Shown here in pieces: positions 27,601 through 43,834 of a stretch of DNA of 64,000 nucleotides; position 1 is the stretch's first letter; every line of letters starts with the position of its first letter. Source of the DNA: a virus. Position numbers and translations under genes: made by a program. The stretch is taken from positions 47,531 to 111,530 of the IMG/VR virus record IMGVR_UViG_3300028044_000003, one strand, 5' to 3'. Under the pieces are notes generated by a model. It was not told the origin of the DNA and made no database searches. It was given only the letters and a program-made list of their open reading frames with translations.

Positions 27601-30600
27601 ATAAATCAATAAGATATCCATCAATACTCCCAGTTATTGTTACATCGTTTTTTTTTAATCCTTTAAAACTATTTGTTATTTTAAATGAAGGATATTCTTT
27701 TTTTATAGAGTTTAATAAAGGATGTTTTTTATAGTTTTTTGCAAGTTCTTTTTGAAATTTTTCCATCAAAAATATCTTACCTGTTTCTGAAGCCCCTTCA
27801 AATTGAGATTTTATGTCTTTATATAACTTGTTAAAATAATCACCTTGTTTATCTAAAGTCACCGTAAAATCTAAGTCGTGTAAATCTTCAGTTATTTCTC
27901 TATAAAGAGTACCTTGTTTTCTTAAACTCAAACTTCCTGTAAGTAATAAACCTAATTTTTGAAATTTTGATATTATTTCTTTGGCTTTTTCATCTTTTTC
28001 AATAGTATTGTTATAATTAGTTATTTGTTGTTCTGTATCTAAAATCGTTCCAAACTTATCAAAAGTATTATTTAACACATCGTTTGCAATATCAGATAAT
28101 AAATTTTGTAGTTCGTCATTAGTTAATTTAGTATTTAGAAATAATTTTTCTAAAAACTGTTTTACTTTAGATAAATAATATTTAATTTGTTTTTCTAACT
28201 TACTATTACCATCTATTCTCCAGTAATCGGCTTTTCGATTTTGATAACTATCTCTAGGATTTTCAAAATTATTTTTGATTGCGTCAGCTATAAAATCTAT
28301 AACTATTAATTCTTTTATAGTATAATCATTTAACTGAGGACTTCTTTTTTTATAATCTTCAAAAATTTGTTGATAGTTATTAATATTTTCAATACTATAA
28401 ACTAAATCTGTTCTAATCTTATTTTTTTTACCTAAAAAACTGTAAGCAACATAAGCCGTTTCTTTTAATAATCCTTCGTCTTTAAAATTATTTTTTATTC
28501 GAATAGTTTTATATAATAGATCTGTTACTGCTAAAGGATTAAATTCGTGTAATAATTCGTTTTTAAATTCTGTTGTAAAGTTTAAACTATTAAGGAAATC
28601 AATTAATTTAGACGATAATAAATCTTCAAAATTTATTTGTTCTTCTACTCCTGGTTTAACGTTAGTAAAAGATTGAGTAACAAACTCTCTAAATCCTTCT
28701 ATGTCTTGTTTAGAACCTAATATGTGAATTTGTTCAGGTTCAAATATAAGACCTATATCACCTGGAGTTATAATAGAATCATATCCGTTCTGTATAAATT
28801 TATCTTTATATTTTTGCTCTAAGGAATCGTACTGTAAGCTATCATCTTCAATATAAGGATTTTTTAAATTTAACAACAATCTTTTTATTTTATCTCCAAA
28901 TATACCACTCGACTTATAATAACTAAAATATATACCCGGTGTTTCTATTGCAAAATTTAAATCGAATTTTTCAAAATCCGCTTTACCTTCATGATAAACA
29001 ATATCTTTTACTTTGCTATCAGAAAATATAGTGTCTAGATATTGAGAGTATAGTTGCTGAGCTTGTTGCTTTTGTTGTGGGGTTATTTCTTTAGTGAAAT
29101 CATAACCTTCATCATTAGTAGTAAACCCTTTTGATTTTAAAAATGTTTTTAAATCATTTAATAATTCATCTCTTAATTTATCTCTATTTTCTAATGCTTT
29201 GTCTCCAATATCTTCTATGGAATGTGTTTCTGTGTAAAATGGTCTTATTAATGTAAATTTAACTGCTCCTAAAGAAATTGCTTTATTTATTTTAGGTATA
29301 AATAAATCTAACAATTCATTTATTTTATCTGCTTCAAAATCATAAATTTCTGGCTTTAAAGCTACTTGAGCATTTTTAAAATCTTTATCATCATATTCTG
29401 GAATTCTTTCATCATTAGTAATGATTGCTTTAGATTTAACTACGGTATTAAAACCTAAAGCTTCATATACAGCATTAGCTAATTCAGGATTAGAATCAAA
29501 TAGTTCTTCTACTCCTGGTTTAATTTGTCCTAATGAATAATATAAATAATTAGGGTTTGAAAAATAATCATTAAATGAAGTTTTAAAATCAATAAGGTCT
29601 CTAATATCTTTATTTCTACCTATATCCATCTTAGCTTCAAAAGTATCTTGCCATCTCATGTCTCCAAATGTATTTTTATTAGATGGAGGATTGATATTTA
29701 TAAAAAAGTCAACAGGCATACCTTTGATTATTAAAGTATGAGTTGTTTTTTCACCTTTACTAAATACTTGAGCTTGATTTGTTTTTGGATTTATTTTATA
29801 GGTTAAATCTGGAAAAGTAGATTTTACTAAATCTAACCAGTTATCTTGTAATTCTTTTGGTACTTGCCAATCTAAGTCATGCAAGTTATCATTAGATTCT
29901 CTATATACAGTTCCTTCATTTGAAAGAGCTGGAGAACCTGTAAACATAAAACCTAAAGAATTTAATTTATGATATATTTTATTTATAGTAGAATTATTTT
30001 CTAACACTTCTTTTAAAGATACAACAGTTTCTCCTTTTCTAGCTCTACTAGAATTATTAACTATTTTAGATGTATTATTAAATAATATATCATCTACAAT
30101 TTCATTTATTACAGCATCAAAAGGTCTAATGTTAACTTTATTAACACCTTTAGTTTCAATACCTCTTTGCTTTAAAAATCTATCAACAGCTTTGTAATAA
30201 TCTGATTTCCATATTTTATTAAATAAAGCTAGTATACCATTAATAATAGTTTCTAAAGTTGTTAGCTTTTTATCTTGCTTTGTTTTTTTAGTTCTATCTT
30301 TATTTTCTACTATTCTTTCAGCTAAAAGTTTACTAAGTATTTCAACTTTTAATTTTCTTTCATTGTTTTTATAGATAGGATCATTTTTATATAAATCATA
30401 ATACTGTTGGTATTTTTCCCAACTAGCTATATTTTCTAATGCTCTTCTAATTAATGGAGATGCTTCAGCGTGTTTGCTAGCACCCATAAACTCAATTGCA
30501 AAAGTAGCAACCTCTTCAGCATAATCTAAAGTGTTATATTTGTTAGAATCAAGAAATACAGCTTTGTGTAATATATCAGATACTGCAACAGCATTACTAT

Positions 30601-30955
30601 TTAATCCTTTTTCTTGTAATCTTTTTTGTAAATTATTTACAACTATAGTATCTACATTAATAGATGTTAAAAAATCTTTTAATTTATTTTCAAGGTTGTT
30701 AGCTAATTCAGGATTAGAATCAAATAGTTCTTGAACACTCGGTTTTACTCCTGGTTTTATTTCTTGTACTACTCGTTCACCAGGTTTATTAAAACCCATA
30801 TTTCTGTCAGAAATCTTTTTAATAACTTCTTCAGGAGTACGTATAACACCATCGTTCTCTAACCAATCCCTCATTGCTTCAAACTTACCGATCAAAGGAT
30901 TATTTTCTAAAGCTTTCCACTCTGGAGAATTAAAATTAGGACAAGAATTTTTCAT
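21674..30955 (-). CDS. Giant polyvalent virion/ejected protein with zincin, ART-like, nucleotidyltransferase-like and LysM parts
   Basis: The 3093-residue protein has an N-terminal helical region (about 90-270), a nucleotidyltransferase-like module with GSP (340-342) and DLD (360-362), an ADP-ribosyltransferase-like domain (about 650-765, VYHEGKADFEKFD and GIYFS), and a second helical plus nucleotidyltransferase module (GS at 1007, DLD at 1027-1029). A zinc-metallopeptidase motif HEFAH is at 1292-1296. A long coiled-coil region (about 1480-1640 and beyond) follows, with a LysM-like segment near 2758-2803 and a hydrophobic helix near 2910. Modules 1 and 2 are internal paralogues. KPGV linkers join the modules. 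Such polyvalent proteins are thought to enter the host with phage DNA. It is the last gene of the leftward module. Confidence 0.75.
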   Translation of the reverse strand: MKNSCPNFNSPEWKALENNPLIGKFEAMRDWLENDGVIRTPEEVIKKISDRNMGFNKPGERVVQEIKPGVKPSVQELFDSNPELANNLENKLKDFLTSINVDTIVVNNLQKRLQEKGLNSNAVAVSDILHKAVFLDSNKYNTLDYAEEVATFAIEFMGASKHAEASPLIRRALENIASWEKYQQYYDLYKNDPIYKNNERKLKVEILSKLLAERIVENKDRTKKTKQDKKLTTLETIINGILALFNKIWKSDYYKAVDRFLKQRGIETKGVNKVNIRPFDAVINEIVDDILFNNTSKIVNNSSRARKGETVVSLKEVLENNSTINKIYHKLNSLGFMFTGSPALSNEGTVYRESNDNLHDLDWQVPKELQDNWLDLVKSTFPDLTYKINPKTNQAQVFSKGEKTTHTLIIKGMPVDFFININPPSNKNTFGDMRWQDTFEAKMDIGRNKDIRDLIDFKTSFNDYFSNPNYLYYSLGQIKPGVEELFDSNPELANAVYEALGFNTVVKSKAIITNDERIPEYDDKDFKNAQVALKPEIYDFEADKINELLDLFIPKINKAISLGAVKFTLIRPFYTETHSIEDIGDKALENRDKLRDELLNDLKTFLKSKGFTTNDEGYDFTKEITPQQKQQAQQLYSQYLDTIFSDSKVKDIVYHEGKADFEKFDLNFAIETPGIYFSYYKSSGIFGDKIKRLLLNLKNPYIEDDSLQYDSLEQKYKDKFIQNGYDSIITPGDIGLIFEPEQIHILGSKQDIEGFREFVTQSFTNVKPGVEEQINFEDLLSSKLIDFLNSLNFTTEFKNELLHEFNPLAVTDLLYKTIRIKNNFKDEGLLKETAYVAYSFLGKKNKIRTDLVYSIENINNYQQIFEDYKKRSPQLNDYTIKELIVIDFIADAIKNNFENPRDSYQNRKADYWRIDGNSKLEKQIKYYLSKVKQFLEKLFLNTKLTNDELQNLLSDIANDVLNNTFDKFGTILDTEQQITNYNNTIEKDEKAKEIISKFQKLGLLLTGSLSLRKQGTLYREITEDLHDLDFTVTLDKQGDYFNKLYKDIKSQFEGASETGKIFLMEKFQKELAKNYKKHPLLNSIKKEYPSFKITNSFKGLKKNDVTITGSIDGYLIDLFFVSDLELDKNEKGFQDWEPIFESKIKMGRAKDIRDFANYIPFNRKSDGSFANIKGFRHFTFSNKNTFIDNKVDSDTITSEDVYDQLREEFIRENSIQEIEPNASEEDRSLSIVFQIAEKLSNKLRVPFQIITSDKAFELTTGTKNPWKGQKAFFLGGKVYFVGNNIDFETQFHEFAHPFVRALMVENPRLMNDLYEKFIATPEGQVILQQTLDEYSGVQDNSGIVKEEVLVKAIQLSASKKAQGIKPDNILPTLIQRFFTGLRTFLNKLFGNKPVSRINENSTLYDLAEILLDDEQFELDSTKITQGDIVAYQNNNAELIKSIMDVTNDNAAPVFEIVKDMYDKARGTIRAMNPLKDKELIEALKDEYQRGDLYDLTQNLNKLKLELEKDLELTKDRANRFVVTLNRVENMVSKLREHIKVINSDLSDLTKKQNLDYIKKLKYYENIINYWSNFTKNTMNVFNNDLKLKTDDPIYSFVNNIDENLENARKEVQGDNETGYLKGVGQVLWEQWEDMAERNDKYYTEIIRTLQLNGAPQSQIEAYHKEYYGLTISEKETYDRLSSARSLNIKDKAQLERLKRKMYTEGVILTKEKILETLKGNLGDSNYFNGWLEGYMYQSDPVIGGFAKFLKDALIEVNVKSFDTYYNQTEVLKPLLDALGYTQRQQGKLGREIGFKDKRGFEEDGEIKPKEVWAFIDKFKDVDYTISQKKLEIRQLKEEYDRTRDSEIEKELNQKKTEYLEYLRKWFHQPYTDVFYAKDDIFKNSAEGAAARELRDNWFNDLNAQTDPDLALDDEALVAENLRALRIRYKEMYSYYDRNGNFKNEFDRKITDILIEHRKLTRNFYEERERIGVFENEFNAFKDRLITVELLDPVTQAEEIRRREDEWLKENTYQRLKVDADGKVIYYNVLREKIQQLNAIKDRMPQGDKQREAMEKISKLLEQQISMVNISKDDNNTPDGTIMSEEQIDTLADIQEQINSLRQDILNVNGFTKKESAQLRGLYRSLDRGIPGIQQLISSLYATAKARKRKAGINDKDLERYNLLVQEISDMSSKEPTEYYLDILNDKIKNIEGLPDDFMLKNFGQDVNEITISNVDRLYENILGLDNEVLKELFKASPEFKAWFEKNHYQEVYYDKDRDNEIEVWKRLNIWTVKTPVGDEYYKKREVTYSNGDVVSINRIPNYKYIRKVVKKEYTDENGNVVKLRTEKIVGKTVTNTKEWLPKELPDSPFRNERYYELKNASPDSRDGKLFKLLEKVKEFHLKNQEGKPVRSRLYYDFPRFESSLYEKIITSKEDRQRGISKTLGKKFPIFEYIIRRIRQFYQKAKDDGLETLNPDLDYDLVRVTSEGIEPDTIPVQGLYNIPIDDVSTDFITSMYAYASSLIKQEKLIEIHPIAKALDQVLKTNTPKELEKLDKKNFLNNAIEFVKGDSNVRSNIYETLMKREFYDERLLGFGKNSKPIQTFSKFIFGRASMAMFALNIPAALKDYLGSKYQKMLLMSGGKYIDPKSIAKGEAWAFKVMSEKSFGSASEGMGPQIYQIGAKTLNVQLTELFQVSMKDPRESFARAASRSLPSDVLGMSWLYNFREWLQGQSETSLFGAMMYKQTVYQYDKPIAYMDAWEIRDGVLTIKEGIDPDYGPRKTTHLFVTGDTMDSISTRYNIPIDELKKRLGLENFNDVEPGTELTIATGAKFKDMLNKFNIVQQSLEGNYANMNQPLAQGFLFFRFISYLKKFFTTMFVERFAFAGDPLSGNIRPRYNPGLNELKMGFYISTLRNLYRLSKNTSEQWGIMNQEERFNMLRMPLEIMGLIFIQSLLLPLFGWDEDDDEKYEKLREKSGDLPLPFIADDPEHPFRLMGWAENHALLLAMNVRSENETFIPLPGFGLDDYTKLLDFQSLAFGPTIESYSKMGALGYHTLMNNERAYYKRDSGPYEWQQEGGSKFITTLAKSIGIDGSNVSPIEKIKQKISIKNRSAGG
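29475..29508. repeat. 34-base direct repeat inside the 3093-residue gene, copy A
   Basis: The 34 bases are identical to 30699-30732 and encode, on the minus strand, the linker core ELFDSNPELAN at about residue 485. They are followed by ACTCCTGGTTT (encoding KPGV), which recurs at about 28645-28659. DNA identity this long within one coding sequence points to a recent duplication or recombination. Confidence 0.9.
30699..30732. repeat. 34-base direct repeat inside the 3093-residue gene, copy B
   Basis: This is the second copy of the 29475-29508 repeat, encoding ELFDSNPELAN at about residue 76, next to a KPGVKPS linker. It marks the boundary between the N-terminal segment and the first helical plus nucleotidyltransferase module. 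Confidence 0.9.
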
Positions 30956-30964
30956 TGAATTTGA

Positions 30965-33900
30965 TTATTTAAAACAAGTTACGAAATTACTAATAACATC
31001 TTGATCTGATACAGGTTGTTGTGAAGTTACTATGTCTTTAAGTTTTTGAGATGAAGTTTCTATTATAAAACCAGGGTTATAATATCCAAAGTTTTTTAAT
31101 AACTCGTTAGATAAATAAAGAAAACCTCCCCTATAATCATCTTTATTCAAACTTTGACCATAACCACTAGAACTTAACATTAAGCTTTTATCTTGGATAT
31201 CTTCTCTAAGCTGTGTAATAAAATTATCTACATCAGTTTTTAGTTTAGGATTAGCAACCAAAATACCTTTATCATTTCTAACATCTTTAAGATTTGTTTT
31301 TAATATATCAAATTTTATTACGTTTGGTTTATTAGGTATTTTTTCTGTTACACCCACACCGTCTACTAAAAATAGAGCTCCTGGAAACATTGAGTATACA
31401 TTTTCCATCGCATTATTATCCCGGTACTCAAATATGTTTTCTTTTAGAGGTTTAACAGTGTCAAAAAAAATACTTTGATCAGTACTTACATCAGTTAATA
31501 GTTCTTTTAAAGATTGAATTTTACTTATTGGTGAAACATTAACAGGGGTTACTTTTGTAGTTACACTAGGTTGAGTAAATTGTATAGATTTAAGTTCCCC
31601 TCTAACTTCCATAAGAAGTTTGGAAAATCTACCTTTATCTTGTTCTATACCATTATATTTATGTGTAAGTTCAGCATTTCCTGTAGCTAATAACTTAGCA
31701 AGAGCATCTGGATTTTGTTGGAAAGAATCTTTTAATAATGCTTTCATAATTGTTGGAGACATGTTATCCCAAACTTTCTGATCTAATCCTTTAAACTCTT
31801 TTCCTAATTCTCTAAGTCTTTTACCATCTTTAGTATCTTTTATAACACTACCTACAGCTCGATTATTCTCATTCTTAGGAGAGAACTCAGTTTTATAATA
31901 TTGAAACGCTTGTTCTACAGAATCAAAATTTATACCTAAGTGTATAAAAGGTCTAATAGCAAAGTTACTTAACTCAGCATTCTCTCCTGTACCAGCGTAA
32001 ATATTAATCTTAATTCCTGCTGCTACTAAAGGATTTGATTCTAGAATCTTGCTTGTCATCTTCATTCCTGTCTTTAAGTCTACATTACTAATGTAAACCT
32101 CACCTGTTTCTTTGTCTACTAAATTATACAAGTCATTATCTTGTAATATCCACTTAGAAGACTGAGGAGCTTTTTCTCTTTTACCTGTAGATTTATTATA
32201 AAACTCTTTAAATCTTGTATTAGTAGTAAAAAATTCTTTAGGCATCTTACCATCAGATTTTTCTACATATTGATTGTATGCATCTATATCTGATTGAGAA
32301 ATAATTTTTACACTTTCACTTTCATCTTCTTCTTGAGGTTTTACTTCAGTACCCCAATCATATTTATTAATAAGATAATCTAAAGCTGTAGCGTGAGTAG
32401 CATAATTCTTTTCTTCATAATAAAGAATAGGACTTTTTATTATTTTACTTGATTTAATATCGTTAATAATAGCTTGTCTATATTCTTTTGTAGCATTAGT
32501 ATTACCAAAATTATTACCAGTAATCATCCACTCAATAAACTTTTTAGTAGATTTTATACCTTGTTCTTTTCTTGTACCTGTTTCATCTGCAAAATCAAAA
32601 GGATTACCTACAGTGTTTCCATCTTTATAATTTTGTAAAAATGTTTTTTTCTTGTTTCCTCTGTATGCAATTAGCATAGGTTTCTTACCAGGAAACTTAT
32701 AATCAAACATAGATTTTGCTTCTGGAACAATATCATTCCAAAAGTTTTTACCTGTATATTCTGTGTTTTCTTCTAAATCTTTAGGTAAGATAACATTTTC
32801 TGATTGTATTAAATTGTCTTTGTTTATGTCAGAATAAATTTCTTCTGCTGTTAAAATAACTTGCGGTTGAGTAGTAAGTTTAGCTGGTGTTGCGGGTATA
32901 CCTGGTTCTAAATCCGCAGCTCTTCTAAATGTAAGGGTAATAGTATAATTAGTAATAACTCTACCATCTGAAAGTTTAATTGGCGGATAAGGATTCTTCT
33001 TTATATTTCCTAATGGCGTTGTGTGAGAGAGAGCAAATCTACCTTTACCATCCATACCAAATGTATAAATAGTACCATCTTTAGTAGCAATTTCATTAGT
33101 AGGTTTTCTTCCTTGGTAATCTTCTTTATAGGCACCTTGGAAAGTTATCTTACCTTTATTATCATCCCATATACCAAGGCCAGAATTATTACCTATTGTA
33201 TAAACAACAACAGGATATCCTTTAGCAGACTTAGCTTCTGTAGTATCTCTATGCGGAGCTATACTTTGGTTATCTAAATATATGTTTCCCAATATAGAAT
33301 CATAATCAGACATATCTAGACCTAAAGCGTTTTGTATTTTATCAATTAACGGTTGTAAATCTGATATAGGAGGTAAAGGATTACCGTTTTGATCTAATTC
33401 GTGATAGTCATAAATATATTTTGACTTATCTACTGTTAATCCAGCTTTTTTTAGAGCCGCTATTTGTTGTTTAGTTTTTTCAACACCAGCAAAAGAATTA
33501 ATTAATAATGGTTTTGCTTTAAGATTTACTCTTGACCACATACGACCAAAAGAAAACTGCCAGTTAGCATTAACTCCAACATTTTCTTTATAAGCTTGTC
33601 TCTGAATTTGAGGAGCTATAAGATTTATAATTTCTTGAGTATCAACTTTTGTAGGATTTGTATCAACTTTAACAACACCGTAATCTGGAGAAACTACTTT
33701 AATTTCAGAAATAAAATCTGATGTTGCCGATATTTCAGATATTTTTTCTAAACCTTTACCAGCTAAAACTTTATTGATAGCTTCTAACTCTTTAACTTGA
33801 TATTTTCTTAACTCTTCAAGAGTTTTAAATCTTTTTAATAATTGTACTTCGTTAGTTATTGTAAAAAATAAATCTACTACCGGTAAATGGTGTAAAGAAC

Positions 33901-36900
33901 CTGTTAATACTGTATACCCACGTTTTGCAAATTCTTTTAATCTACCTCTAACTCTTTCCTTAACTTCATCATTTTTATAACTATATTTTTTTGAAAAATC
34001 TAAAATAATACCTTGAGGAGTTGTTTCGGTAGTTTTAAACTCAGGAACTACTTTATATATTTCTTCTATAGTAATGTCATCAGCGTCAATAACGCTTAAA
34101 GGGTTTTTAGATTTAAAAGTTGTTTTACCAGAGCCAGGAGTAAGGTATATAACCTTACCGCGATATTCGTCTTTTATAGTAATATATTTATCAATAATTA
34201 TATCAGTGTTGTTTGATAAAAAGTCTGCTGAATAATTTTTAGTTCTAGAACCAAAAAATCTATTTAATAAAACGTTATAGTCAGTTAATATATTTTGATT
34301 ATCAGAAATAGATCTGATATATTTATTAATTACTTTTGGATTAAGTACATCTAAATACCTTTGAGGATTTACTAATCTCGTTAAAGTGAATTGGGTACCG
34401 GATATAAAACCTGATTGTAATAACGCTACTATCTCAAACTCTTCAAAAAACTCAGATATTGCCCTATTAATCTGAACATTTTCTACTTTTTTTACTGTAG
34501 GATCTTTTAACTGATTTAACTCATAATTTAGAACTTGTAGTAAATCTTTAGTTAACTGTACGTTTTTTAAAGTCAAATTTTTATAACCGCGGAACTCGTT
34601 TATGTTTAAGATTTCTACCAGCTTATAATCATTAACCAATTTTGGATAACGGTTTTTTATATTATAAAACCTCTGAGCATAATTATTACTTTCTGTAACA
34701 TCTTCGTTTATAACTGTTTGGAATATAGCTCTTGGATTATAAGTTTTTCTAAGAGCTTGATTTTTTAACCATTTTTCGTATTTTTCTACTCTTTTTACTT
34801 TATCTTCAATGTCTTTGTACTTAGTTTCTATAGGGAACATTACCCTGAATAACTCTCTCTGTACTAAAAATTCAGCAAACTGTTTATCATTAGTAAAATA
34901 ACCCTTATAGCTTTTATCCCTATATGTTTTAATATTTTCATCAGAAATTTTATCTACCGGTTTATTATACTGTACGGTTTCTCTGTATAATTTTTTTACA
35001 GTAATAGGATCTATATAAATAGTATACTTATCCTCAGTTTTTGTAACAATTACTCCAAATTCAGAATAGTTAATTTTTTTAGCTTCTGTATCTTTTTTAA
35101 ACTTGACTTCAACTCCTTTAAAACTATTAGCTTTAGTGTAATCAAACTCTAAAATTTCTTTTTGGAAAATGTAAGTAAGTAGGTGATTCTTAAAAGTTTT
35201 TACTTTATACTCTTTATCATCTTTATTAAGAGTATTTTTTACTACATCGCTTGCTATAAAATTATTTAACTCTAGGTTATTTCTTAGAGGAAATAATTTT
35301 GAAATAAACGCTTCAAGATAATCTTTGATAAAAAAAGATTTAAGCATTGTTTCTTTTTCTAACGCTTGTATTTTATCAAGAGGTATACTATCGTCTTTTT
35401 TAATTTTATTAATTTGTTGTTCTTTTTCAATTAGCTCGTATAACGATGCTGGACGAGTAGTATCTGGATTAAAGTTTAATTTAATAGCTCTAACCTTATC
35501 TGACATTTCTTCTACTTCTAAGTAATGTAAAAAGATAAGCTGTTCGTATAATTTTTTAACTTCTGGTTCTATATTTTGCGTCTCATCATCGATTAAGTTT
35601 TGTAAAACTTCTTCTAAAACTCTACCATCATCATCTAGATTAATATTATAATCTAGATTTAATCGATCTTTAATACTACTTATTTTTACATAAGGATTTG
35701 AAATATCATTTTGCGAAAGACCTAATTCTTCACCTATTTTAAATTTTACTTCACTAGTATTTGTTTCAGATAATAAACTATTTGCAGCAATTTTACTATC
35801 GATATATTCAACAATAATCGGCTGACTCATAAAGTTAACTATAGTAGTAAACGGAACACCGGCCTGAACTAAGAATAATATTTTAGGAGCGGCCTCTTTG
35901 TTACCCTGGATATTAAAAATCCAAGGATCTTTTGCTACGTCTACCCATCCGTTAATTAACTGAGATATTACATCAGCTATACGGTTAACACCATTCACAT
36001 CCGTAACATCAGATAAAGAAATAGCTTTTTCATTATCTACTATTAGACTTCTATGTGGTATTAAAAGTCTTTGAGGAAGCCTTTTAGGAACAGTATTATT
36101 TGTTCTTGTAGGATTCATATACATCCCTACAATATTGAATAATGTGTTAAAAGTATTATCTACGGCGCCAAGCCCTAAAGCTTGTTTACCAACAGAGTTA
36201 GAAGTATGACTATGTAAATTATATCCGTATTCAAATATTTTCGTTTCAGCTATTAAAGGTTTTTCTTCTGTACCTAAAAAACCATCAATCGTTTTGTTTC
36301 TAAAAGGATTGTATTTTTTAGATTTAGAAGCCATTCTAGTAGCTTCTGGTTTAGCAATATCAGTATCGTTTGGTGTAATTAAAGATTTAAAATTACTATC
36401 TAATGCTAGTATATCTTTTACTACATTAATAAGATTGTTCTCTAAACCTTTTACAGTATTTTCTGAGGTATCATATTTTACAACACCATCTTTAATACTA
36501 AGGTTAGGCATAGTTACGTTTAACTTATCAACGTCAAAATCCGAACCTGATTTAACAACAATTTCTATCGGAGGAATAATAATATTACCTGCTTCTTTTG
36601 GTAAAAACTCTGCTACCTCCATAAACTCCATAGAGTTATGGCCTTGTACAGGAATACGTACACCAATCATAGTAATCATTTTACGATTACTACCAGTATT
36701 TAACCAAGTTTCATTCTTAATTAATTTATTAAGATTTGCTAAAGAAGCTTTATAGTTTAATTCTTTTTTAGGTTTACCGTTCTCATCTTTTACTTCATCA
36801 TAAACAGCTACTTCTTTTAGATAAAGTAGTTTTTCAAAATCACCTTGTATGGCAATTTTAACTTGCATACTTACTGTACCGTCTTTACCCTTGTGATAAA

Positions 36901-39900
36901 ACCTTAAACCGTTGGTACCGTATTTAAGTATATCTTTTTGATCGGGTTTTTTAAAACCAGATTGTTGCCAGCCTACACTAGATACCTGGATTAAACCTTC
37001 TCCCTTAACTTTTTGAGTAATTAATTTTCTAACAACAAGAGATGTAATTAATTTTTCAATTTTTTCAGCTTGAGGGGTTAAAGAAAAATCTACATTGTTT
37101 AATTCTGTAGCTGAAAAGTTTAAAAAATCTAATTCATAATCTGCGATCTCTTGACGCGTTAATTCTTTTTTTACAAACTCTACAAGGTTTATTAATTTAC
37201 CAGAAGGTTTACCGTTTTTTATCTCCCAGCCTATTTCATTAAGTAGTTCTTTTTTCTTAGCTTCAGTTAAATCATTTACTACTCGGTTATAGTCTTGTAA
37301 TAAACGATATTCTTTAGACTGTAGTTTTATTTCTTTAGGTTCAGAGTTCCATAAAGATATCCTATCTTCTAAACTTAAACCTTCGTTTATTTTATAATCG
37401 GCAGGAACCCCGTTTACCATTAAACTTTCAGCTACAAGTTTTCTTAACTGACTGGCAAATATTACTTTCTTTTTAAACTTAGGAGCAATGTCTACCTGAT
37501 TTTTAAGATACTTTAGATGTATTGTGTTTTTAGTATACTCAAAATTGTTATTGTTTGATAATGTGTTACCAGCTTCGTTTAAATATTTATCTGGATTATC
37601 TTTCCTAGAAAGAGTTCCCACCTTAGATCCGGATATAAATGTAACGTAACCTATATTTTCCCTGGTTAATTTATCGTGTAATTCTTTAAGTATACTATTT
37701 TCACCTATTACTGAAGGGATTAACGGCATTAAAGAATACTTATGAAAAGCGGTTATAGGTAAACCATTAGTTATTAAAGGCCCGTAATATTGATCTTTCA
37801 TAACCGGGAAGAACTCAAGAATATCTTCTAAATTAACAGTATCACCGTTAAGTATTTTATTGTAAAGAACATCTTGATCGTTTGACCAAGTACCTTTTAA
37901 ATAATTTAACTCGCGATATTTATCAAAAGTTATATAACCCTGAGCATTTGTAGATTCTTCTTTTCCAGTATATTTAGAAGCTTTTTTAGAACCTAAGATT
38001 TCTTCAAAAGCAGCAGCATAGTCCGACTTAACCGTTTCATCTTGTAATACAGCGGTATTCATAGTACCGTCAAATAACTCGTCATATTCTACGCCAAGTT
38101 TTTGAGCATAAGTTGAAAAACGATTATTAGGTTTAACTGTTGTTCTTAGATTATTAATAAAACTTAAAGCTTTTTTATCAGTTCTATAAATATTACCAGT
38201 AGAACCGGCACCTGCTATACGTTTATTAGCTTCTTGTTTTGTATGTTCAAAAGAAGCAACGTTACCGTAAAAAATAGTGTAAGCTTCTACGTTATTTATA
38301 AACGTATTAGCAAACATAAATCTAGAAATAACATCAAACCTTTCATAAATATTTAAGTTTGATAATTTTTTATCATTTAATAATGACTCACTAAACCCAA
38401 TACTTAGTTTCTTGTTGGTTATTAAGTCTGTTAACGGATTTAAAATATCTGCTTTGTAACCTTTATTAAAGTAATTTGTAATATCAGTTTGTATTTTACT
38501 TAATAAAACTAGATCTTTACTATTAAGATATTCTTCTAGCTCACTTGTTTTTAAATATTCTTTATTTTCTAAAAGTGTTAATAATTCTTCTTTAGTATCT
38601 TTTCTTAAGATATCTTTAAACATTAAAAAATCAGAACCTCTCTGAGCATATTTCCAATCAAATACAGCGTTAGTACTTTTGTCTAAATCCCTTAGTATTT
38701 TTATACGATCTAATTCAGCGTTTAAATAACCTATAAGGATATTGGTAAAAGTCTGAGTACCGGTATTTTTATCTTTTATAAAAGTATCCAAATCAATATA
38801 AGCTCTGGAATTACTTCCTAATACTTTGGTTAAAGAATAACTATAAGAAGTAGACTTATCTGAATGACGAGGTAGTTCAAATATTCCAAGTTTTATAGCT
38901 AAAGCTATATCAGATACTCTTTTTGTTGTAGGATCTGCTGAGGCAAGTGCAATACCTTTACTAAACTCTTCATCATCGTATATAGCTGTACCACTAAGAT
39001 TTTGTAAGTCTAATTTAACATTAGCTGCGTTTTGAAAATTAGATTCTTTTAATTTGTTACCGAAAGTTTTTAAACCGTTTTCATCAGTTATTTCTTCAAA
39101 CAATGATTTTAATACGATAGATCTTTTTGCATCCGGATTTCGTTTAATATCAAAATGACTCATCCAGGGTAACGTTATAAGCTCCTGGTAAGTGTTTACT
39201 TCATTTATCGTATTAGTTATAATCGTTAGTTCGTTATTTAAACTATGTTCAAACTGAGTCTCTCCTTCAGCGTTTAAAACCATAAACGATAAATTAGTCT
39301 CACCGTATGTAGCTTCTAGTTTAGCATAATTTTCAAATAAATAACTTAGATCTACTATATTCTCAGAATCAGATTCCTTCCAAAACTCGTCTACAGTTAA
39401 ATTATTATTTTTTAATTTACTGATTTTTGTAAGTATAGTTTTAAGATTGTCTTGTGATAAACCTATTTGACTATCACCTAGTTTAATAGAATCTTTGATT
39501 AAACTTGTATTACTTACATATACTCCTAGAGAGTGTAAAAAAGATATAGGGTTTTCTTTAACCTTATCAAGACTATTGAAATTTTTAAATATTTGACTCA
39601 AGTTAAGTACCTTGGTCGTATAAGTTTGATCATTTCTTTTTACATCAATAGAATAAATAGACTCTTTAGTTTTAAAATTATCTCGCCATAAAGATTTTAA
39701 CTTGCTAGTTTGACCATAAGATTTACCAGCAGTTACTTCCCAACCAGTAACATCTTCTCCTAACTCTGTTCTTTTTAAATTTACTTGTAGTAATTTAATA
39801 TAAGACTTGTTAAAAGATTGCCAGAAACGAGTTTGTAATTTGAATCTTTCTACATCAGAACCTATTTCATCAATACCGCCTAATCTTTCAGCTATTTGAC

Positions 39901-42900
39901 CAAATATATTAGTTAAGTCTTTATCACCACGTTTAATTATATTCTGATACATTTTATCAAAATCTAAATTATTTTGTGTAGCGGTGATAGCTTTATTCCA
40001 GGCTATGTTAAAAGGAATAAACTTTGGAGTACCGTAACGATTTACTTTTAATACTTTTCTGTCTTCTTTAATATCATAGTCTATCATAGTACCTAACATA
40101 AATTGAATTTCTTCAAAGGCCAATTCCTGGGTAGACTTATCGATACCTGTTCTGTCAGCGTACTCTGAAAAACCTTGTTCTCGTTTTTCAGCTTCTATAG
40201 CATCTTGTTCTTCTTGTGTTAGATTTTCTTTAACTGGTTGTTTAGCAGCTTCTTTACTTTTTTCCTCTAATAAATCTTTAGCTTTTAGAGGGATGATATT
40301 AGATTTTCTTATATGATAATTTATTAAACCACCTTTACTACTGTTAAGATTATCTAATATATTATCAAGATTTCCAAAATTATCAATAGCTAAAGACAAT
40401 TCTTGAAACTTATTTAATAATAAACTATAAGCATCAGTATTAGTACTAGTATTTTTAAGTTGTAAATTGGTTAACGATCTTAACAACTCAAGATCTGATT
40501 TAACTATCTGGTATGCTTTTTTTAATTTTTCAGGATCGTTTATATATGTTAAAAAATTTCCTTCATAATTTTGTTTACCAATAACTGGTTCAAGATTTAC
40601 TATACTATTGTATATTTTATCTTTATAAATTTTTTGTTCGTCTGTATCAGACGGTAAGTTATTATATTTATTTATAATTGCTTGAAGCTGGTCTTTAGTA
40701 AATGTTTTTGTAGCACTTGAATAATTAATTTCAGTATTATTAACTACTGCAGAAAAATAATAATCCATACTAGATAATATTTCTACACTAGAACCACCTA
40801 AAAGAATATTTTCTTGTTTTTGATTATCAGTTTGATAAGTCTTTGGTCCTTCGTAAGCTAATGAATCAAACCTTTTAAAGTTATTCCAGGAAAAAGGTTG
40901 TTCAAACAAAGGCCCTTTACCAGTATTTAGCTGTTCGTACATATTATAGAGATATGGTACCGATGATTGTCCTTTAGCTAAATCTATAGTAGTTAGATTT
41001 TTAAATAACTCAATTAGTAGATCTTTAATTTTTCTGAATATATCTTTCTTAGCAGGGGCTTTTACAAACTCACCTTTACCTGTTAACATGTATTTTCTAA
41101 AATCTTCAGCTAAATACTCTTCTAACTCCAGGTCTGAAGCTTTACTAAATTTTACAAAAGAACCAGTATGGGTTTTAAATACTCCAGGTAGTTTACGAGC
41201 TTCTGAGTAAAGCTTATCTTGTTGTTCTTTTGTTAATAGGGTTTGAGTAAATATATGCCAAGCTTCGTGATACAAATCAGTAGAGTCAGAACCCATGTAT
41301 AAAGTAACGCCGGCTCTATTAAACTCAGCTACTTTTTCCATGTTCATAATACTCCTCATATCGTTCATCTTCCAAATATCGGAAGCCATTCGTGCTGCTG
41401 GATGATTAGCAAACCATTTATTAGCTCTTTCTTCGTATTGTTTTAAATCAGAACCTAACTGATTTTCAAGAGCTTTCTGAGTATTGTTTTTATCAAGTCC
41501 TAATAGTTCACTTAATAAATCTTCATCTTCATCAGGTTTTACCTCTAGTATAGTTTTATTCTCAAAAGTTATGTAGGGATTATAGAACTTAACTTTATTA
41601 TCAATAGAAGTATAAAAAGGTAAAGTAAAATTGTTTTTTATAAAACTACGATAAGAGATTACATTATCTATTATTTGATTCTGGTCGTTTATTTCAAAAT
41701 CATTAATCATGAAATTTCGAACGCTTTCTTTAATATGCAGTTTAGCTTTTTCTATAACATAAAATTTATCATTAAACTTAAATACATCATTTACCTTTAG
41801 TTGGCTTTCAGAAACTACTTTACCTTGTAATAAAAATTTACCTTCAGAAAAACTGTAAGGTTTATTTTTATAATTTTCTATTTGTAAATCACTTAAGTCT
41901 TCTTCTTTATCGGTTTTAGGGTTACCGTGTAGACCGTTAAAGTATTTTTGTAAAGCTTCAACAAATTTTTCTTTATTTATTTTTTCAATTTTGTTACCAA
42001 TAACTTGTTCAAAAATAAAATCGTTATTATTATTTCTCTTTAATATAAAAGATTGAAAATTAACGGTTAATAATAAGTTATTATCTTTAATAGTTAATTG
42101 AAAACCAGAACTTGCTTTAATATTAATAAACGTTTCAATTATATCTTTAATTTCTGAATTAACTAAAACCTTATCCGAACTATCTGTTACTTTTTCAGTT
42201 AAAAGTTTTGTTATGTTTTGAGCATATTTAGAATCAAAAGTTAATTCTTTTCTTTCGATAGTAACCGGTATATTTAAAGTTGCTGTCTGATGCTGAATAG
42301 TTACCTCACCGTTATTATTTATTGTATAATTAAAAGGTATTTCTACATTATTAACTTTAAAATCTATATCAGATAATAGTGTATAATCATTTTTATCATC
42401 TTTTCGTATAACAGTCCCATAACTACCACCCACTATATTAAAAGATTCTTTATAACCAACTTCTTTATTTTCAAGATATTTGAATGTTTTATAAAGATCT
42501 AGTAACTGGGATTTTATTATAGAATCAACTTCTTTTGTTTGTTCGTTTTTAAACGTACCCTTGATATTATAAACTTTACTTAATTCAATAACTACTGTAC
42601 TATATACATTAGTTTTAGAATTATTAAACACTGTATCATCTATTACATCTATACCTAGTTCATCTTGTTTAACTAAATCAGATAATTTAACTTTAGAGTC
42701 AATCCCAAAAGAACTTAAATTAAAAGGATTTGTCTTTTTAGATTGGCCCGTTTTATTACTTATATCAAACGTATCTGTGTTAAAAAGAATTTCTGTATCA
42801 TCTTCAAAAGCAAATGTAGAATAGTAGTTATTTTTTTCTTTAACAATAATTACTTTTACTTTTTTATCAAACATTAACGGAGTACCGGATACATACAAGT

Positions 42901-43834
42901 TACTTACGACACTTCTAATAGCAGCTTCGTATAAATTATTTAATAGAATATTTGGCCTTTCTACATTTATATTTGTAGTTTCTCTATTAAAACTAGGATT
43001 ATCAGAAGCTTTTTTTAAAGCTATATTATCATCTGGTATATTAGAAAGTTTTGGATTAGATTCTGTTCCGGGTAACATATAAGCCATATCGGTAAATATT
43101 ACCTTACCTTGTTTAATATAATAGTAAGGTTTAAAACCCTCTTCCCACTTAGAACTGTTTGGTAATTTAACTAAATAAGGGGCCGTTATATTAACAGTAC
43201 TTGATATATTAAATATATTATGAGGAATTACTCTGTAATTAGACGCTTTATTTTCTTGACCTAATAAAATTTGAACATCGTTTGATGGATCAATAGTTCT
43301 ATCGTAAAGACTGATATCTCTTTTTAAGTCACTTAACTGAAGAACTATTGTTTGGTTTTTTATATAACTCTTACTTAGTTCTTCTAAAGCTTTTACTGAT
43401 TTATTATCTTCATTTTTTTTTATTTCTTCTTGAAGAGCTAATTCTTCATTTACTGAATTAATATTAGCAATACTAATTACATCTTGTGATTCGCTAACAT
43501 AACTAGCAACTTCTGATAATCCATCTACAGAATCAAATTTTAGTTTAAGTTGATTTATTATGTCTAGAGATAAACCAGAAGCGTCAAATCTTTTAGTAAA
43601 CTCTTCATTAGCACCATAAACATTTAGTATACCGGAAGGTATTAACTTAACATAAGCTAGGGCTAATACTGGCGCTTTACCTTTACTAAGGTAAGCGTTA
43701 TAAATAAACTTCATAAAATCTTCTAGATCATAATTATCAGAAAGTTCATTTTGTAATAGTCCGATAATATTATCTAATGTTTTTTTTTTCTCTTGGTCTG
43801 TTAATCTAATTTCCAGACTACAATTATTACTCAT
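30965..43834 (-). CDS. Giant virion RNA polymerase fused to zincin, P-loop, AlkB-like and NADAR-like domains
   Basis: The 4289-residue protein carries the crAss-type RNA polymerase core. The catalytic loop SGSDFDVDK has its Asp triad at 2432, 2434 and 2436, and the preceding GVRIPVQGHNSMEF recalls the conserved region of the second double-psi barrel. Upstream is a zincin motif HEAWH (856-860). Downstream are a P-loop PGSGKT (3233-3238), an AlkB-like 2OG-Fe(II) domain with HRD (H3528, D3530), H3604 and a TLTFRR end, a DUF4326-like GNPFDF segment (about 3744), and a NADAR-like domain (LSNFA, SVEQAFQ, about 3940-4080). In related phages the RNA polymerase enters with the DNA and transcribes early genes. 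At almost twice the size of the single-chain crAss-type enzymes I know of, it has gained large accessory parts. Confidence 0.85.
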   Translation of the reverse strand: MSNNCSLEIRLTDQEKKKTLDNIIGLLQNELSDNYDLEDFMKFIYNAYLSKGKAPVLALAYVKLIPSGILNVYGANEEFTKRFDASGLSLDIINQLKLKFDSVDGLSEVASYVSESQDVISIANINSVNEELALQEEIKKNEDNKSVKALEELSKSYIKNQTIVLQLSDLKRDISLYDRTIDPSNDVQILLGQENKASNYRVIPHNIFNISSTVNITAPYLVKLPNSSKWEEGFKPYYYIKQGKVIFTDMAYMLPGTESNPKLSNIPDDNIALKKASDNPSFNRETTNINVERPNILLNNLYEAAIRSVVSNLYVSGTPLMFDKKVKVIIVKEKNNYYSTFAFEDDTEILFNTDTFDISNKTGQSKKTNPFNLSSFGIDSKVKLSDLVKQDELGIDVIDDTVFNNSKTNVYSTVVIELSKVYNIKGTFKNEQTKEVDSIIKSQLLDLYKTFKYLENKEVGYKESFNIVGGSYGTVIRKDDKNDYTLLSDIDFKVNNVEIPFNYTINNNGEVTIQHQTATLNIPVTIERKELTFDSKYAQNITKLLTEKVTDSSDKVLVNSEIKDIIETFINIKASSGFQLTIKDNNLLLTVNFQSFILKRNNNNDFIFEQVIGNKIEKINKEKFVEALQKYFNGLHGNPKTDKEEDLSDLQIENYKNKPYSFSEGKFLLQGKVVSESQLKVNDVFKFNDKFYVIEKAKLHIKESVRNFMINDFEINDQNQIIDNVISYRSFIKNNFTLPFYTSIDNKVKFYNPYITFENKTILEVKPDEDEDLLSELLGLDKNNTQKALENQLGSDLKQYEERANKWFANHPAARMASDIWKMNDMRSIMNMEKVAEFNRAGVTLYMGSDSTDLYHEAWHIFTQTLLTKEQQDKLYSEARKLPGVFKTHTGSFVKFSKASDLELEEYLAEDFRKYMLTGKGEFVKAPAKKDIFRKIKDLLIELFKNLTTIDLAKGQSSVPYLYNMYEQLNTGKGPLFEQPFSWNNFKRFDSLAYEGPKTYQTDNQKQENILLGGSSVEILSSMDYYFSAVVNNTEINYSSATKTFTKDQLQAIINKYNNLPSDTDEQKIYKDKIYNSIVNLEPVIGKQNYEGNFLTYINDPEKLKKAYQIVKSDLELLRSLTNLQLKNTSTNTDAYSLLLNKFQELSLAIDNFGNLDNILDNLNSSKGGLINYHIRKSNIIPLKAKDLLEEKSKEAAKQPVKENLTQEEQDAIEAEKREQGFSEYADRTGIDKSTQELAFEEIQFMLGTMIDYDIKEDRKVLKVNRYGTPKFIPFNIAWNKAITATQNNLDFDKMYQNIIKRGDKDLTNIFGQIAERLGGIDEIGSDVERFKLQTRFWQSFNKSYIKLLQVNLKRTELGEDVTGWEVTAGKSYGQTSKLKSLWRDNFKTKESIYSIDVKRNDQTYTTKVLNLSQIFKNFNSLDKVKENPISFLHSLGVYVSNTSLIKDSIKLGDSQIGLSQDNLKTILTKISKLKNNNLTVDEFWKESDSENIVDLSYLFENYAKLEATYGETNLSFMVLNAEGETQFEHSLNNELTIITNTINEVNTYQELITLPWMSHFDIKRNPDAKRSIVLKSLFEEITDENGLKTFGNKLKESNFQNAANVKLDLQNLSGTAIYDDEEFSKGIALASADPTTKRVSDIALAIKLGIFELPRHSDKSTSYSYSLTKVLGSNSRAYIDLDTFIKDKNTGTQTFTNILIGYLNAELDRIKILRDLDKSTNAVFDWKYAQRGSDFLMFKDILRKDTKEELLTLLENKEYLKTSELEEYLNSKDLVLLSKIQTDITNYFNKGYKADILNPLTDLITNKKLSIGFSESLLNDKKLSNLNIYERFDVISRFMFANTFINNVEAYTIFYGNVASFEHTKQEANKRIAGAGSTGNIYRTDKKALSFINNLRTTVKPNNRFSTYAQKLGVEYDELFDGTMNTAVLQDETVKSDYAAAFEEILGSKKASKYTGKEESTNAQGYITFDKYRELNYLKGTWSNDQDVLYNKILNGDTVNLEDILEFFPVMKDQYYGPLITNGLPITAFHKYSLMPLIPSVIGENSILKELHDKLTRENIGYVTFISGSKVGTLSRKDNPDKYLNEAGNTLSNNNNFEYTKNTIHLKYLKNQVDIAPKFKKKVIFASQLRKLVAESLMVNGVPADYKINEGLSLEDRISLWNSEPKEIKLQSKEYRLLQDYNRVVNDLTEAKKKELLNEIGWEIKNGKPSGKLINLVEFVKKELTRQEIADYELDFLNFSATELNNVDFSLTPQAEKIEKLITSLVVRKLITQKVKGEGLIQVSSVGWQQSGFKKPDQKDILKYGTNGLRFYHKGKDGTVSMQVKIAIQGDFEKLLYLKEVAVYDEVKDENGKPKKELNYKASLANLNKLIKNETWLNTGSNRKMITMIGVRIPVQGHNSMEFMEVAEFLPKEAGNIIIPPIEIVVKSGSDFDVDKLNVTMPNLSIKDGVVKYDTSENTVKGLENNLINVVKDILALDSNFKSLITPNDTDIAKPEATRMASKSKKYNPFRNKTIDGFLGTEEKPLIAETKIFEYGYNLHSHTSNSVGKQALGLGAVDNTFNTLFNIVGMYMNPTRTNNTVPKRLPQRLLIPHRSLIVDNEKAISLSDVTDVNGVNRIADVISQLINGWVDVAKDPWIFNIQGNKEAAPKILFLVQAGVPFTTIVNFMSQPIIVEYIDSKIAANSLLSETNTSEVKFKIGEELGLSQNDISNPYVKISSIKDRLNLDYNINLDDDGRVLEEVLQNLIDDETQNIEPEVKKLYEQLIFLHYLEVEEMSDKVRAIKLNFNPDTTRPASLYELIEKEQQINKIKKDDSIPLDKIQALEKETMLKSFFIKDYLEAFISKLFPLRNNLELNNFIASDVVKNTLNKDDKEYKVKTFKNHLLTYIFQKEILEFDYTKANSFKGVEVKFKKDTEAKKINYSEFGVIVTKTEDKYTIYIDPITVKKLYRETVQYNKPVDKISDENIKTYRDKSYKGYFTNDKQFAEFLVQRELFRVMFPIETKYKDIEDKVKRVEKYEKWLKNQALRKTYNPRAIFQTVINEDVTESNNYAQRFYNIKNRYPKLVNDYKLVEILNINEFRGYKNLTLKNVQLTKDLLQVLNYELNQLKDPTVKKVENVQINRAISEFFEEFEIVALLQSGFISGTQFTLTRLVNPQRYLDVLNPKVINKYIRSISDNQNILTDYNVLLNRFFGSRTKNYSADFLSNNTDIIIDKYITIKDEYRGKVIYLTPGSGKTTFKSKNPLSVIDADDITIEEIYKVVPEFKTTETTPQGIILDFSKKYSYKNDEVKERVRGRLKEFAKRGYTVLTGSLHHLPVVDLFFTITNEVQLLKRFKTLEELRKYQVKELEAINKVLAGKGLEKISEISATSDFISEIKVVSPDYGVVKVDTNPTKVDTQEIINLIAPQIQRQAYKENVGVNANWQFSFGRMWSRVNLKAKPLLINSFAGVEKTKQQIAALKKAGLTVDKSKYIYDYHELDQNGNPLPPISDLQPLIDKIQNALGLDMSDYDSILGNIYLDNQSIAPHRDTTEAKSAKGYPVVVYTIGNNSGLGIWDDNKGKITFQGAYKEDYQGRKPTNEIATKDGTIYTFGMDGKGRFALSHTTPLGNIKKNPYPPIKLSDGRVITNYTITLTFRRAADLEPGIPATPAKLTTQPQVILTAEEIYSDINKDNLIQSENVILPKDLEENTEYTGKNFWNDIVPEAKSMFDYKFPGKKPMLIAYRGNKKKTFLQNYKDGNTVGNPFDFADETGTRKEQGIKSTKKFIEWMITGNNFGNTNATKEYRQAIINDIKSSKIIKSPILYYEEKNYATHATALDYLINKYDWGTEVKPQEEDESESVKIISQSDIDAYNQYVEKSDGKMPKEFFTTNTRFKEFYNKSTGKREKAPQSSKWILQDNDLYNLVDKETGEVYISNVDLKTGMKMTSKILESNPLVAAGIKINIYAGTGENAELSNFAIRPFIHLGINFDSVEQAFQYYKTEFSPKNENNRAVGSVIKDTKDGKRLRELGKEFKGLDQKVWDNMSPTIMKALLKDSFQQNPDALAKLLATGNAELTHKYNGIEQDKGRFSKLLMEVRGELKSIQFTQPSVTTKVTPVNVSPISKIQSLKELLTDVSTDQSIFFDTVKPLKENIFEYRDNNAMENVYSMFPGALFLVDGVGVTEKIPNKPNVIKFDILKTNLKDVRNDKGILVANPKLKTDVDNFITQLREDIQDKSLMLSSSGYGQSLNKDDYRGGFLYLSNELLKNFGYYNPGFIIETSSQKLKDIVTSQQPVSDQDVISNFVTCFK

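What the first reader, a model, noticed from the sequence alone, without database searches (positions are those of the whole stretch)
30965..43834. Giant RNA polymerase carrying zincin, P-loop, AlkB-like and NADAR-like domains
Besides the DFDVD catalytic loop, the protein keeps an HEAWH zincin motif, a P-loop, a complete-looking AlkB-like Fe(II) site (HRD...H...R), and a NADAR-like segment. Polymerase and several counter-defence-type activities delivered as one chain would be an unusual polyvalent architecture. NADAR proteins can remove ADP-ribose from modified nucleobases, and AlkB-like enzymes reverse alkylation, so this arm may repair or unmask phage DNA/RNA in the new host.
Basis: partly seen in the sequence, partly recalled or inferred. 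Interest (0 to 1): 0.75.

Follow-up and report, generated by a model that had tools for sequence, protein, structure and literature searches.

The report
Phage polymerase carrying swappable repair domains
A phage related to the gut crAssphages encodes its probably virion-carried RNA polymerase as one 4,289-residue protein that also bears a protease-like domain and two enzyme domains resembling known removers of chemical marks from nucleic acids, and one of these (an AlkB relative) has jumped between the polymerase genes of distantly related phages.

Summary
One open frame (window 43834-30965, minus strand, 4,289 aa, no internal stop) carries: a zincin HEAWH; a crAss-like virion RNA polymerase core (profile hit to the solved phi14:2 polymerase 6VR4, E 1e-45; DFDVD aligned to DFDID); an AlkB-fold Fe(II)/2OG-oxygenase domain (AlphaFold pLDDT 79.5; the best PDB hits are all E. 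coli AlkB, E 1e-9); and a NADAR domain above Pfam's cut-off with the E/K and phage-type His catalytic positions. The P-loop is only a loose motif with no detectable relatives. The AlkB site is not fully canonical: its Fe ligands and second Arg are invariant, but the equivalent of AlkB R204 is Thr in all 15 members readable there.

The new result is that the AlkB module is mobile. It is 81-85% identical in four polymerases whose cores are only 21-28% identical to the window's. AlkB data unite the four (100/99); core data reject that grouping (p-AU 4e-8). Its position varies: C-terminal, N-terminal, or a free-standing gene in a jumbo phage. It is under purifying selection and found nothing in ~50,700 phage records.

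RNAP-NADAR chains already exist, unremarked, in deposited Crassvirales, and polyvalent virion polymerases are a described concept. This is therefore a new variant. Substrates, ejection and cleavage are inferred.

The parts
30965..43834 (-). Giant polymerase gene, 4,289 aa, single uninterrupted ORF (P0001)
   Evidence: the ORF listing and translation
40940..41434 (-). Zincin-like metallopeptidase domain, aa 801-965; HEAWH at 41255-41269, downstream LAE (third ligand)
   Evidence: HExxH...LAE[DEQG]F conserved in the window protein, 11 relatives and Crassvirales cr118_1; no Pfam hit
35798..38320 (-). Catalytic core of crAss-like RNA polymerase, aa 1839-2679; DFDVD at 36527-36541
   Evidence: Profile A7 hits PDB 6vr4 at E 1.1e-45 with DFDVD aligned to DFDID
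34118..34138 (-). Partial P-loop motif PGSGKTT, aa 3233-3239
   Evidence: Motif only; no Pfam family, no phage relatives
32864..33706 (-). AlkB-fold Fe(II)/2-oxoglutarate oxygenase module, aa 3377-3657 (H3528, D3530, H3604, R3637; T3631 in place of AlkB R204)
   Evidence: Pfam PF13532 sub-threshold in window and relatives; AF2 pLDDT 79.5, best PDB hits all AlkB; 16-member alignment; DNA homology block 32848-33702 with three other phages
32321..32680 (-). Segment aa 3719-3838, resembles DUF4326 by eye (..GNPF..); has relatives in L042, L044, L047; family not confirmed
   Evidence: blastp E 1e-12 to 6e-8; Pfam and PF14216 search negative in window
32057..32320 (-). Spacer-like segment aa 3839-3926, recurs beside AlkB in L007 (50% identity) and again near L007's C-terminus
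31562..32011 (-). NADAR domain aa 3942-4091; E3974 and K3981 (E-x6-K) and phage-type His 4058
   Evidence: Pfam PF08719 above cut-off, phrog_1017 E 1.8e-17; catalytic columns conserved in 4/4, compared with PMC11543638
21674..30955 (-). Adjacent second giant protein of the same block (3,093 aa), own HEFAH zincin motif; not part of the polymerase chain

Best explanation
This is the virion RNA polymerase of a Crassvirales-like phage, made as a polyvalent chain. Shown here: a conserved zincin-polymerase backbone, to which small nucleic-acid or nucleotide-editing domains are attached, here an AlkB-fold oxygenase and a phage-type NADAR, and the AlkB unit moves laterally between such genes. Inferred: the chain is packaged and ejected with the DNA; the polymerase starts early transcription; the attached NADAR removes ADP-ribose from guanines (as put there by DarT1-type defences) and the AlkB domain oxidatively removes base adducts, from the phage template or from transcripts/tRNA, so that the first round of transcription is not blocked. 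The zincin may release the domains by cleavage.
For: Polymerase core to 6VR4. NADAR above cut-off with E-x6-K and phage-type His (PMC11543638, PMC11125620). AlkB fold, invariant NxY, HxD, H and R, purifying selection dN/dS 0.14-0.23. All independent AlkB-module carriers but one bear it on the polymerase chain, in different places. Lateral exchange: AlkB tree 100/99 against core tree p-AU 4e-8. The exception is a free-standing jumbo-phage gene with the same ends, near Thg1, Sir2, CYTH and NT5C genes. Literature: polymerase cargo proteins in crAss001 virions (PMC10172136); DarT1 ADP-ribosylates phage DNA and blocks its replication and transcription (PMC11543638); NADARs act on guanine-ADPr in DNA and RNA (PMC11833690).
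Against: No experiment; no proteomics of this phage. The AlkB R204 equivalent is Thr throughout, so 2OG binding and activity are uncertain; D135 is Thr/Ser, so base specificity may differ. AlkB chemistry needs O2 and the host is unknown. Only 4 of the AlkB-bearing polymerase chains also carry NADAR, so the two do not act as an obligate pair.
Confidence: 0.5

Rival explanations
1. Same protein, but the C-terminal domains do not act on phage DNA: they serve RNA (tRNA) repair or destroy NAD-derived immune signals in the host just after entry.
For: Domains found on sister chains include cpYpsA SLOG, the class that PMC9503650 links to ADP-ribose signals. The free-standing AlkB gene sits by Thg1, Sir2, CYTH and NT5C, and that phage also has NADAR and DUF4326 genes. 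PMC9503650 argues phage NADARs mostly meet soluble ADP-ribose derivatives.
Against: The fold search ranks nucleic-acid dealkylases first; characterised NADARs de-ADP-ribosylate DNA and RNA bases. The choice between DNA, RNA and small molecules cannot be settled by sequence.
Confidence: 0.33
2. The AlkB-like domain is a divergent oxygenase with another chemistry (for example hydroxylating a protein or a modified base) or has lost 2OG turnover.
For: AlkB R204 is replaced by invariant Thr 3631 and D135 by Thr/Ser; sequence below Pfam's cut-off.
Against: Fe ligands, NxY, R3637 and a further invariant Arg are all kept; dN/dS 0.14-0.23; AlkB-like Y-x-Y...D loop also kept.
Confidence: 0.12
3. The giant chain is not a virion protein; it is made in the cell and the extra domains are by-products of gene fusion in a shuffling hot spot.
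For: No proteomics for this phage; NADAR occurs in other giant proteins next to polymerase subunits.
Against: Polymerase-associated proteins are virion cargo in crAss001 (PMC10172136); homologues in a Flavobacterium phage are annotated 'structural protein'; the AlkB module is under purifying selection.
Confidence: 0.05

Closest known systems
crAss-like virion RNA polymerase (Cellulophaga phage phi14:2, PDB 6VR4; crAss001 gp47/gp49/gp50)
   Same: Single-chain core with the DFDxD loop, profile E 1.1e-45; block of giant genes
   Different: About twice as long (4,289 against 2,194 residues); carries AlkB and NADAR C-terminal domains
Polyvalent proteins, including N4-like virion RNA polymerases with zincin and sometimes ART domains (PMC5512222)
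   Same: Polymerase, zincin and unrelated enzymes on one chain
   Different: The N4-like polymerase is T7-like, this one is two-barrel crAss-like; neither AlkB nor NADAR is mentioned in that paper's text
Deposited Crassvirales chains with RNAP and NADAR (cr126_1 QOR59539.1, cr130_1 gp79)
   Same: NADAR on the polymerase chain, and zincin in cr130_1; annotated only as DUF1768 or DprA-like
   Different: No AlkB module; NADAR at the N-terminus in cr126_1
E. coli AlkB
   Same: Fold; NxY, HxD, H and one Arg
   Different: R204 and D135 replaced; extra insertions; embedded in a polymerase chain
AlkB domains in plant RNA-virus replicases (PMC544882; also seen)
   Same: AlkB domain recently acquired into a viral polymerase polyprotein
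   Different: RNA viruses of plants; unrelated polymerase; no evidence of common origin here
T4 gp30.3 / YbiA / DarT1-linked NADARs
   Same: E-x6-K pair and the phage-type His
   Different: Those characterised are mostly free-standing

Membership tests
crAss-like virion RNA polymerase | Sequence relation to 6VR4 including the DxDxD catalytic loop | tested here: met
crAss-like virion RNA polymerase | Packaged in the virion and active on early genes | not testable with these tools
   Inferred from PMC10172136 and Drobysheva et al. as cited in PMC7886860
AlkB family (Fe(II)/2OG dioxygenase) | AlkB fold | tested here: met
   AF2 pLDDT 79.5, pTM 0.83; best PDB hits all E. coli AlkB, E 1.3e-9, prob 1.00, TM-score 0.73 by target length
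AlkB family (Fe(II)/2OG dioxygenase) | Fe ligands HxD...H | tested here: met
   H3528, D3530, H3604 invariant in 16/16
AlkB family (Fe(II)/2OG dioxygenase) | Both 2OG-binding Arg of RxxxxxR (R204, R210) | tested here: not met
   R210 equivalent R3637 in 15/15; R204 equivalent is Thr in 15/15. AlkB-fold oxygenase, not filed as a canonical AlkB
AlkB family (Fe(II)/2OG dioxygenase) | Pfam PF13532 curated cut-off | tested here: not met
   Window domain 28 against 31.2 bits; all six members of A4 hit the family at E <= 1
NADAR | Pfam PF08719 above cut-off | tested here: met
   42.6-48.1 bits against 35.1
NADAR | Catalytic E-x6-K and E/D/H on the last strand | tested here: met
   E3974, K3981, H4058, invariant in 4/4; reference PMC11543638
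Zincin-like metallopeptidase | HExxH plus downstream Glu | tested here: met
   fold not predicted, no Pfam hit
P-loop NTPase | [AG]x4GK[ST] and a recognisable family | tested here: inconclusive
   LTPGSGKT lacks the first Gly/Ala; no family or relatives
DUF4326 | PF14216 match | tested here: not met
   No hit in the window's record
Polyvalent proteins | Several unrelated enzyme domains on one delivered chain | tested here: inconclusive
   Architecture met; delivery not testable

The most novel reading that the evidence does not exclude
Virion RNA polymerases of crAss-like phages act as carriers for an exchangeable set of base-lesion erasers (AlkB, NADAR and others), which travel attached to the polymerase and clear host-made adducts from template or transcript during the first round of transcription; the modules are swapped between phages as host defences change.
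Probability: 0.3. Interest if true: 0.88.

Novelty: new variant of a known kind. Interest (0 to 1): 0.66.

Why it matters
It suggests an O2-dependent dealkylase-like enzyme and an ADP-ribose eraser enter the cell attached to the phage polymerase, and it gives a clean case of a single enzyme domain jumping between giant polymerase genes whose cores are nearly unalignable. If the erasers work on phage nucleic acid, they point to host defences that alkylate or ADP-ribosylate it. The modules are short, free-standing in one phage, and easy to express, so this can be tested directly.

Tried and rejected
A structure prediction from only four near-identical sequences failed (pLDDT 38); a 16-member alignment solved it. 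Direct sequence or profile search of the AlkB module against the PDB gave only RCC1-like and other chance hits. Two genome-contig scans and tblastn against phages and plasmids found no AlkB-module relatives. DUF4326 was suspected by eye and not confirmed in the window. P-loop kinase: no support. A recent common ancestor of the four near-identical AlkB carriers was rejected by the core tree. Linker repeats (TQPST) as recombination seams: enriched in some chains (L007, L037) but not all, so left as an idea. A gut/anaerobe absence argument for AlkB was dropped because aerobic Flavobacterium and Cellulophaga phages in the collection lack it too.

Full report
OBSERVATION. The finding's interval is one open frame on the minus strand, 43834 to 30965, 4,289 aa without an internal stop. 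The window is 47531-111530 of a 111,530-base IMG/VR virus record.

POLYMERASE. A nine-member alignment of aa 1830-2700 and its counterparts in relatives hits PDB 6vr4, the solved crAss-like polymerase of Cellulophaga phage phi14:2, at E 1.1e-45, with DFDVD aligned to DFDID. tblastn of the same region finds 108 phage records, among them Crassvirales, Bacteroides and Flavobacterium phages. A large neighbouring protein is closest to a Leptolyngbya phage and to Cellulophaga phages. The phage is therefore crAss-like and distant from the gut isolates.

ZINCIN. HExxH with a downstream LAE is kept in the window protein, in 11 relatives and in named Crassvirales cr118_1. It belongs to the conserved backbone.

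NADAR. It passes Pfam's cut-off. E3974 and K3981 show the spacing of the catalytic E-x6-K pair described for E. coli C7 NADAR (E88, K95; PMC11543638), and H4058 fits the histidine described for phage NADARs. All three are invariant in the four aligned domains. The assignment of H4058 rests on motif position.

ALKB. The first alignment gave a useless model. Iterated searches collected 16 members, and the model from them has pLDDT 79.5 and pTM 0.83. The best PDB hits are all E. coli AlkB (E 1.3e-9, probability 1.00), followed by ALKBH proteins. Aligned to E. coli AlkB (sequence verified against the PDB), N120, Y122, H131, D133, H187 and R210 fall on N3517, Y3519, H3528, D3530, H3604 and R3637; the first four and R210 are aligned by hhalign, while H187 to H3604 is placed by eye. 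All are invariant, but the equivalent of R204 is Thr in 15 of 15 members and D135 is Thr or Ser. The site is AlkB-like, not complete; what binds the far end of 2-oxoglutarate is open.

MOBILITY. Between the window and three other phages the AlkB module is 81-85% identical in protein and about 83% in DNA over about 850 bases with sharp ends (window 32848-33702), while the polymerase cores are 21-28% identical. Chains nearer by core (32-33%) have more distant AlkB modules (49-55%). The AlkB tree unites the four with 100/99 support; core data reject that clade, p-AU 4e-8 (long branches in that tree are a caution). dN/dS is 0.14-0.23 with dS about 0.6: selected for, and exchanged long after the cores diverged.

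ORDER OF MODULES. Window: zincin, RNAP, AlkB, NADAR. L001: zincin, RNAP, NADAR, AlkB. L002: RNAP, NADAR, AlkB, helicase. L007: zincin, RNAP, AlkB, then further domains. L043: AlkB ahead of zincin and RNAP. L047: cpYpsA SLOG and AlkB after RNAP. L050: helicase and AlkB after RNAP. In a 368-kb phage (L014) the same unit is a free-standing gene with matching ends, near Sir2, PRPP synthetase, Thg1, CYTH and NT5C genes; that phage also has NADAR and DUF4326 genes.

DISTRIBUTION. No AlkB-module match among 50,697 phage records or the plasmids, and none found in two scans of GTDB genome contigs, which use few peptide patterns and can miss relatives. RNAP+NADAR chains do exist in deposited Crassvirales: cr126_1 QOR59539.1 and, with zincin, cr130_1 gp79 (the latter has 74 in-frame stops under table 11).

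MECHANISM. Shown: architecture, folds or profiles, catalytic residues, selection, exchange. Inferred: packaging and ejection (crAss001 polymerase-associated proteins are virion cargo, PMC10172136), cleavage by the zincin (proposed for polyvalent proteins, PMC5512222), and the substrates. DarT1 ADP-ribosylates phage DNA and blocks replication and transcription (PMC11543638), and NADARs remove guanine-ADPr from DNA and RNA (PMC11833690), so a NADAR tied to the entering polymerase makes sense. For AlkB, PMC7824862 suggests resetting of methyl marks in jumbo phages; the jumbo-phage neighbourhood here leans towards RNA. AlkB domains in plant RNA-virus replicases (PMC544882) are a parallel.

NOVELTY. 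Polyvalent virion polymerases and NADAR-bearing crAss-like polymerases are precedents, the latter unremarked in the papers found. An AlkB module on a phage polymerase, and its exchange between polymerase genes, was not found in the papers searched, which are open-access only.

Noticed in passing
window 21674-30955 (P0002): Neighbouring 3,093-aa protein with a HEFAH zincin motif, sub-threshold LysM match, two 'LHDLD' nucleotidyltransferase-like repeats and an ART-like 'VYHEGKADFEKF' stretch. Short blocks 87-93% identical in DNA to L002 with a repeated 'KPGVEELFDSNPELA' linker suggest recent exchange here too.
   Followed up: partly
L005/L061 and L059 (cr126_1, cr130_1): Deposited Crassvirales polymerase chains carry NADAR but are annotated as DUF1768 or DprA-like; cr130_1 gp79 has 74 in-frame stops under table 11, so it is probably recoded.
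   Followed up: partly
L014 934-16577: 368-kb phage: Sir2, PRPP synthetase, Thg1, CYTH, free-standing AlkB and NT5C clustered; NADAR and DUF4326 genes elsewhere in the same record. A possible NAD/RNA-repair neighbourhood.
   Followed up: partly
L043 6349-7311; L015 8549-9682: By eye, an ASCH-like segment (L043) and a Macro-like 'FGSNPEGRHGAGAA' segment (L015) on sister polymerase chains; Pfam gave no match.
   Followed up: no
L007, L037 C-terminal regions: Linkers of the type TQPSTSVKPT recur between modules more often than shuffled sequence predicts (4-5 against about 0.3); possible seams for module exchange.
   Followed up: partly
BFVD A0A481YQG8 (outside the window): Pithovirus protein named for NADAR also matches the AlkB model: a possible second NADAR+AlkB fusion in an unrelated virus.
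   Followed up: no
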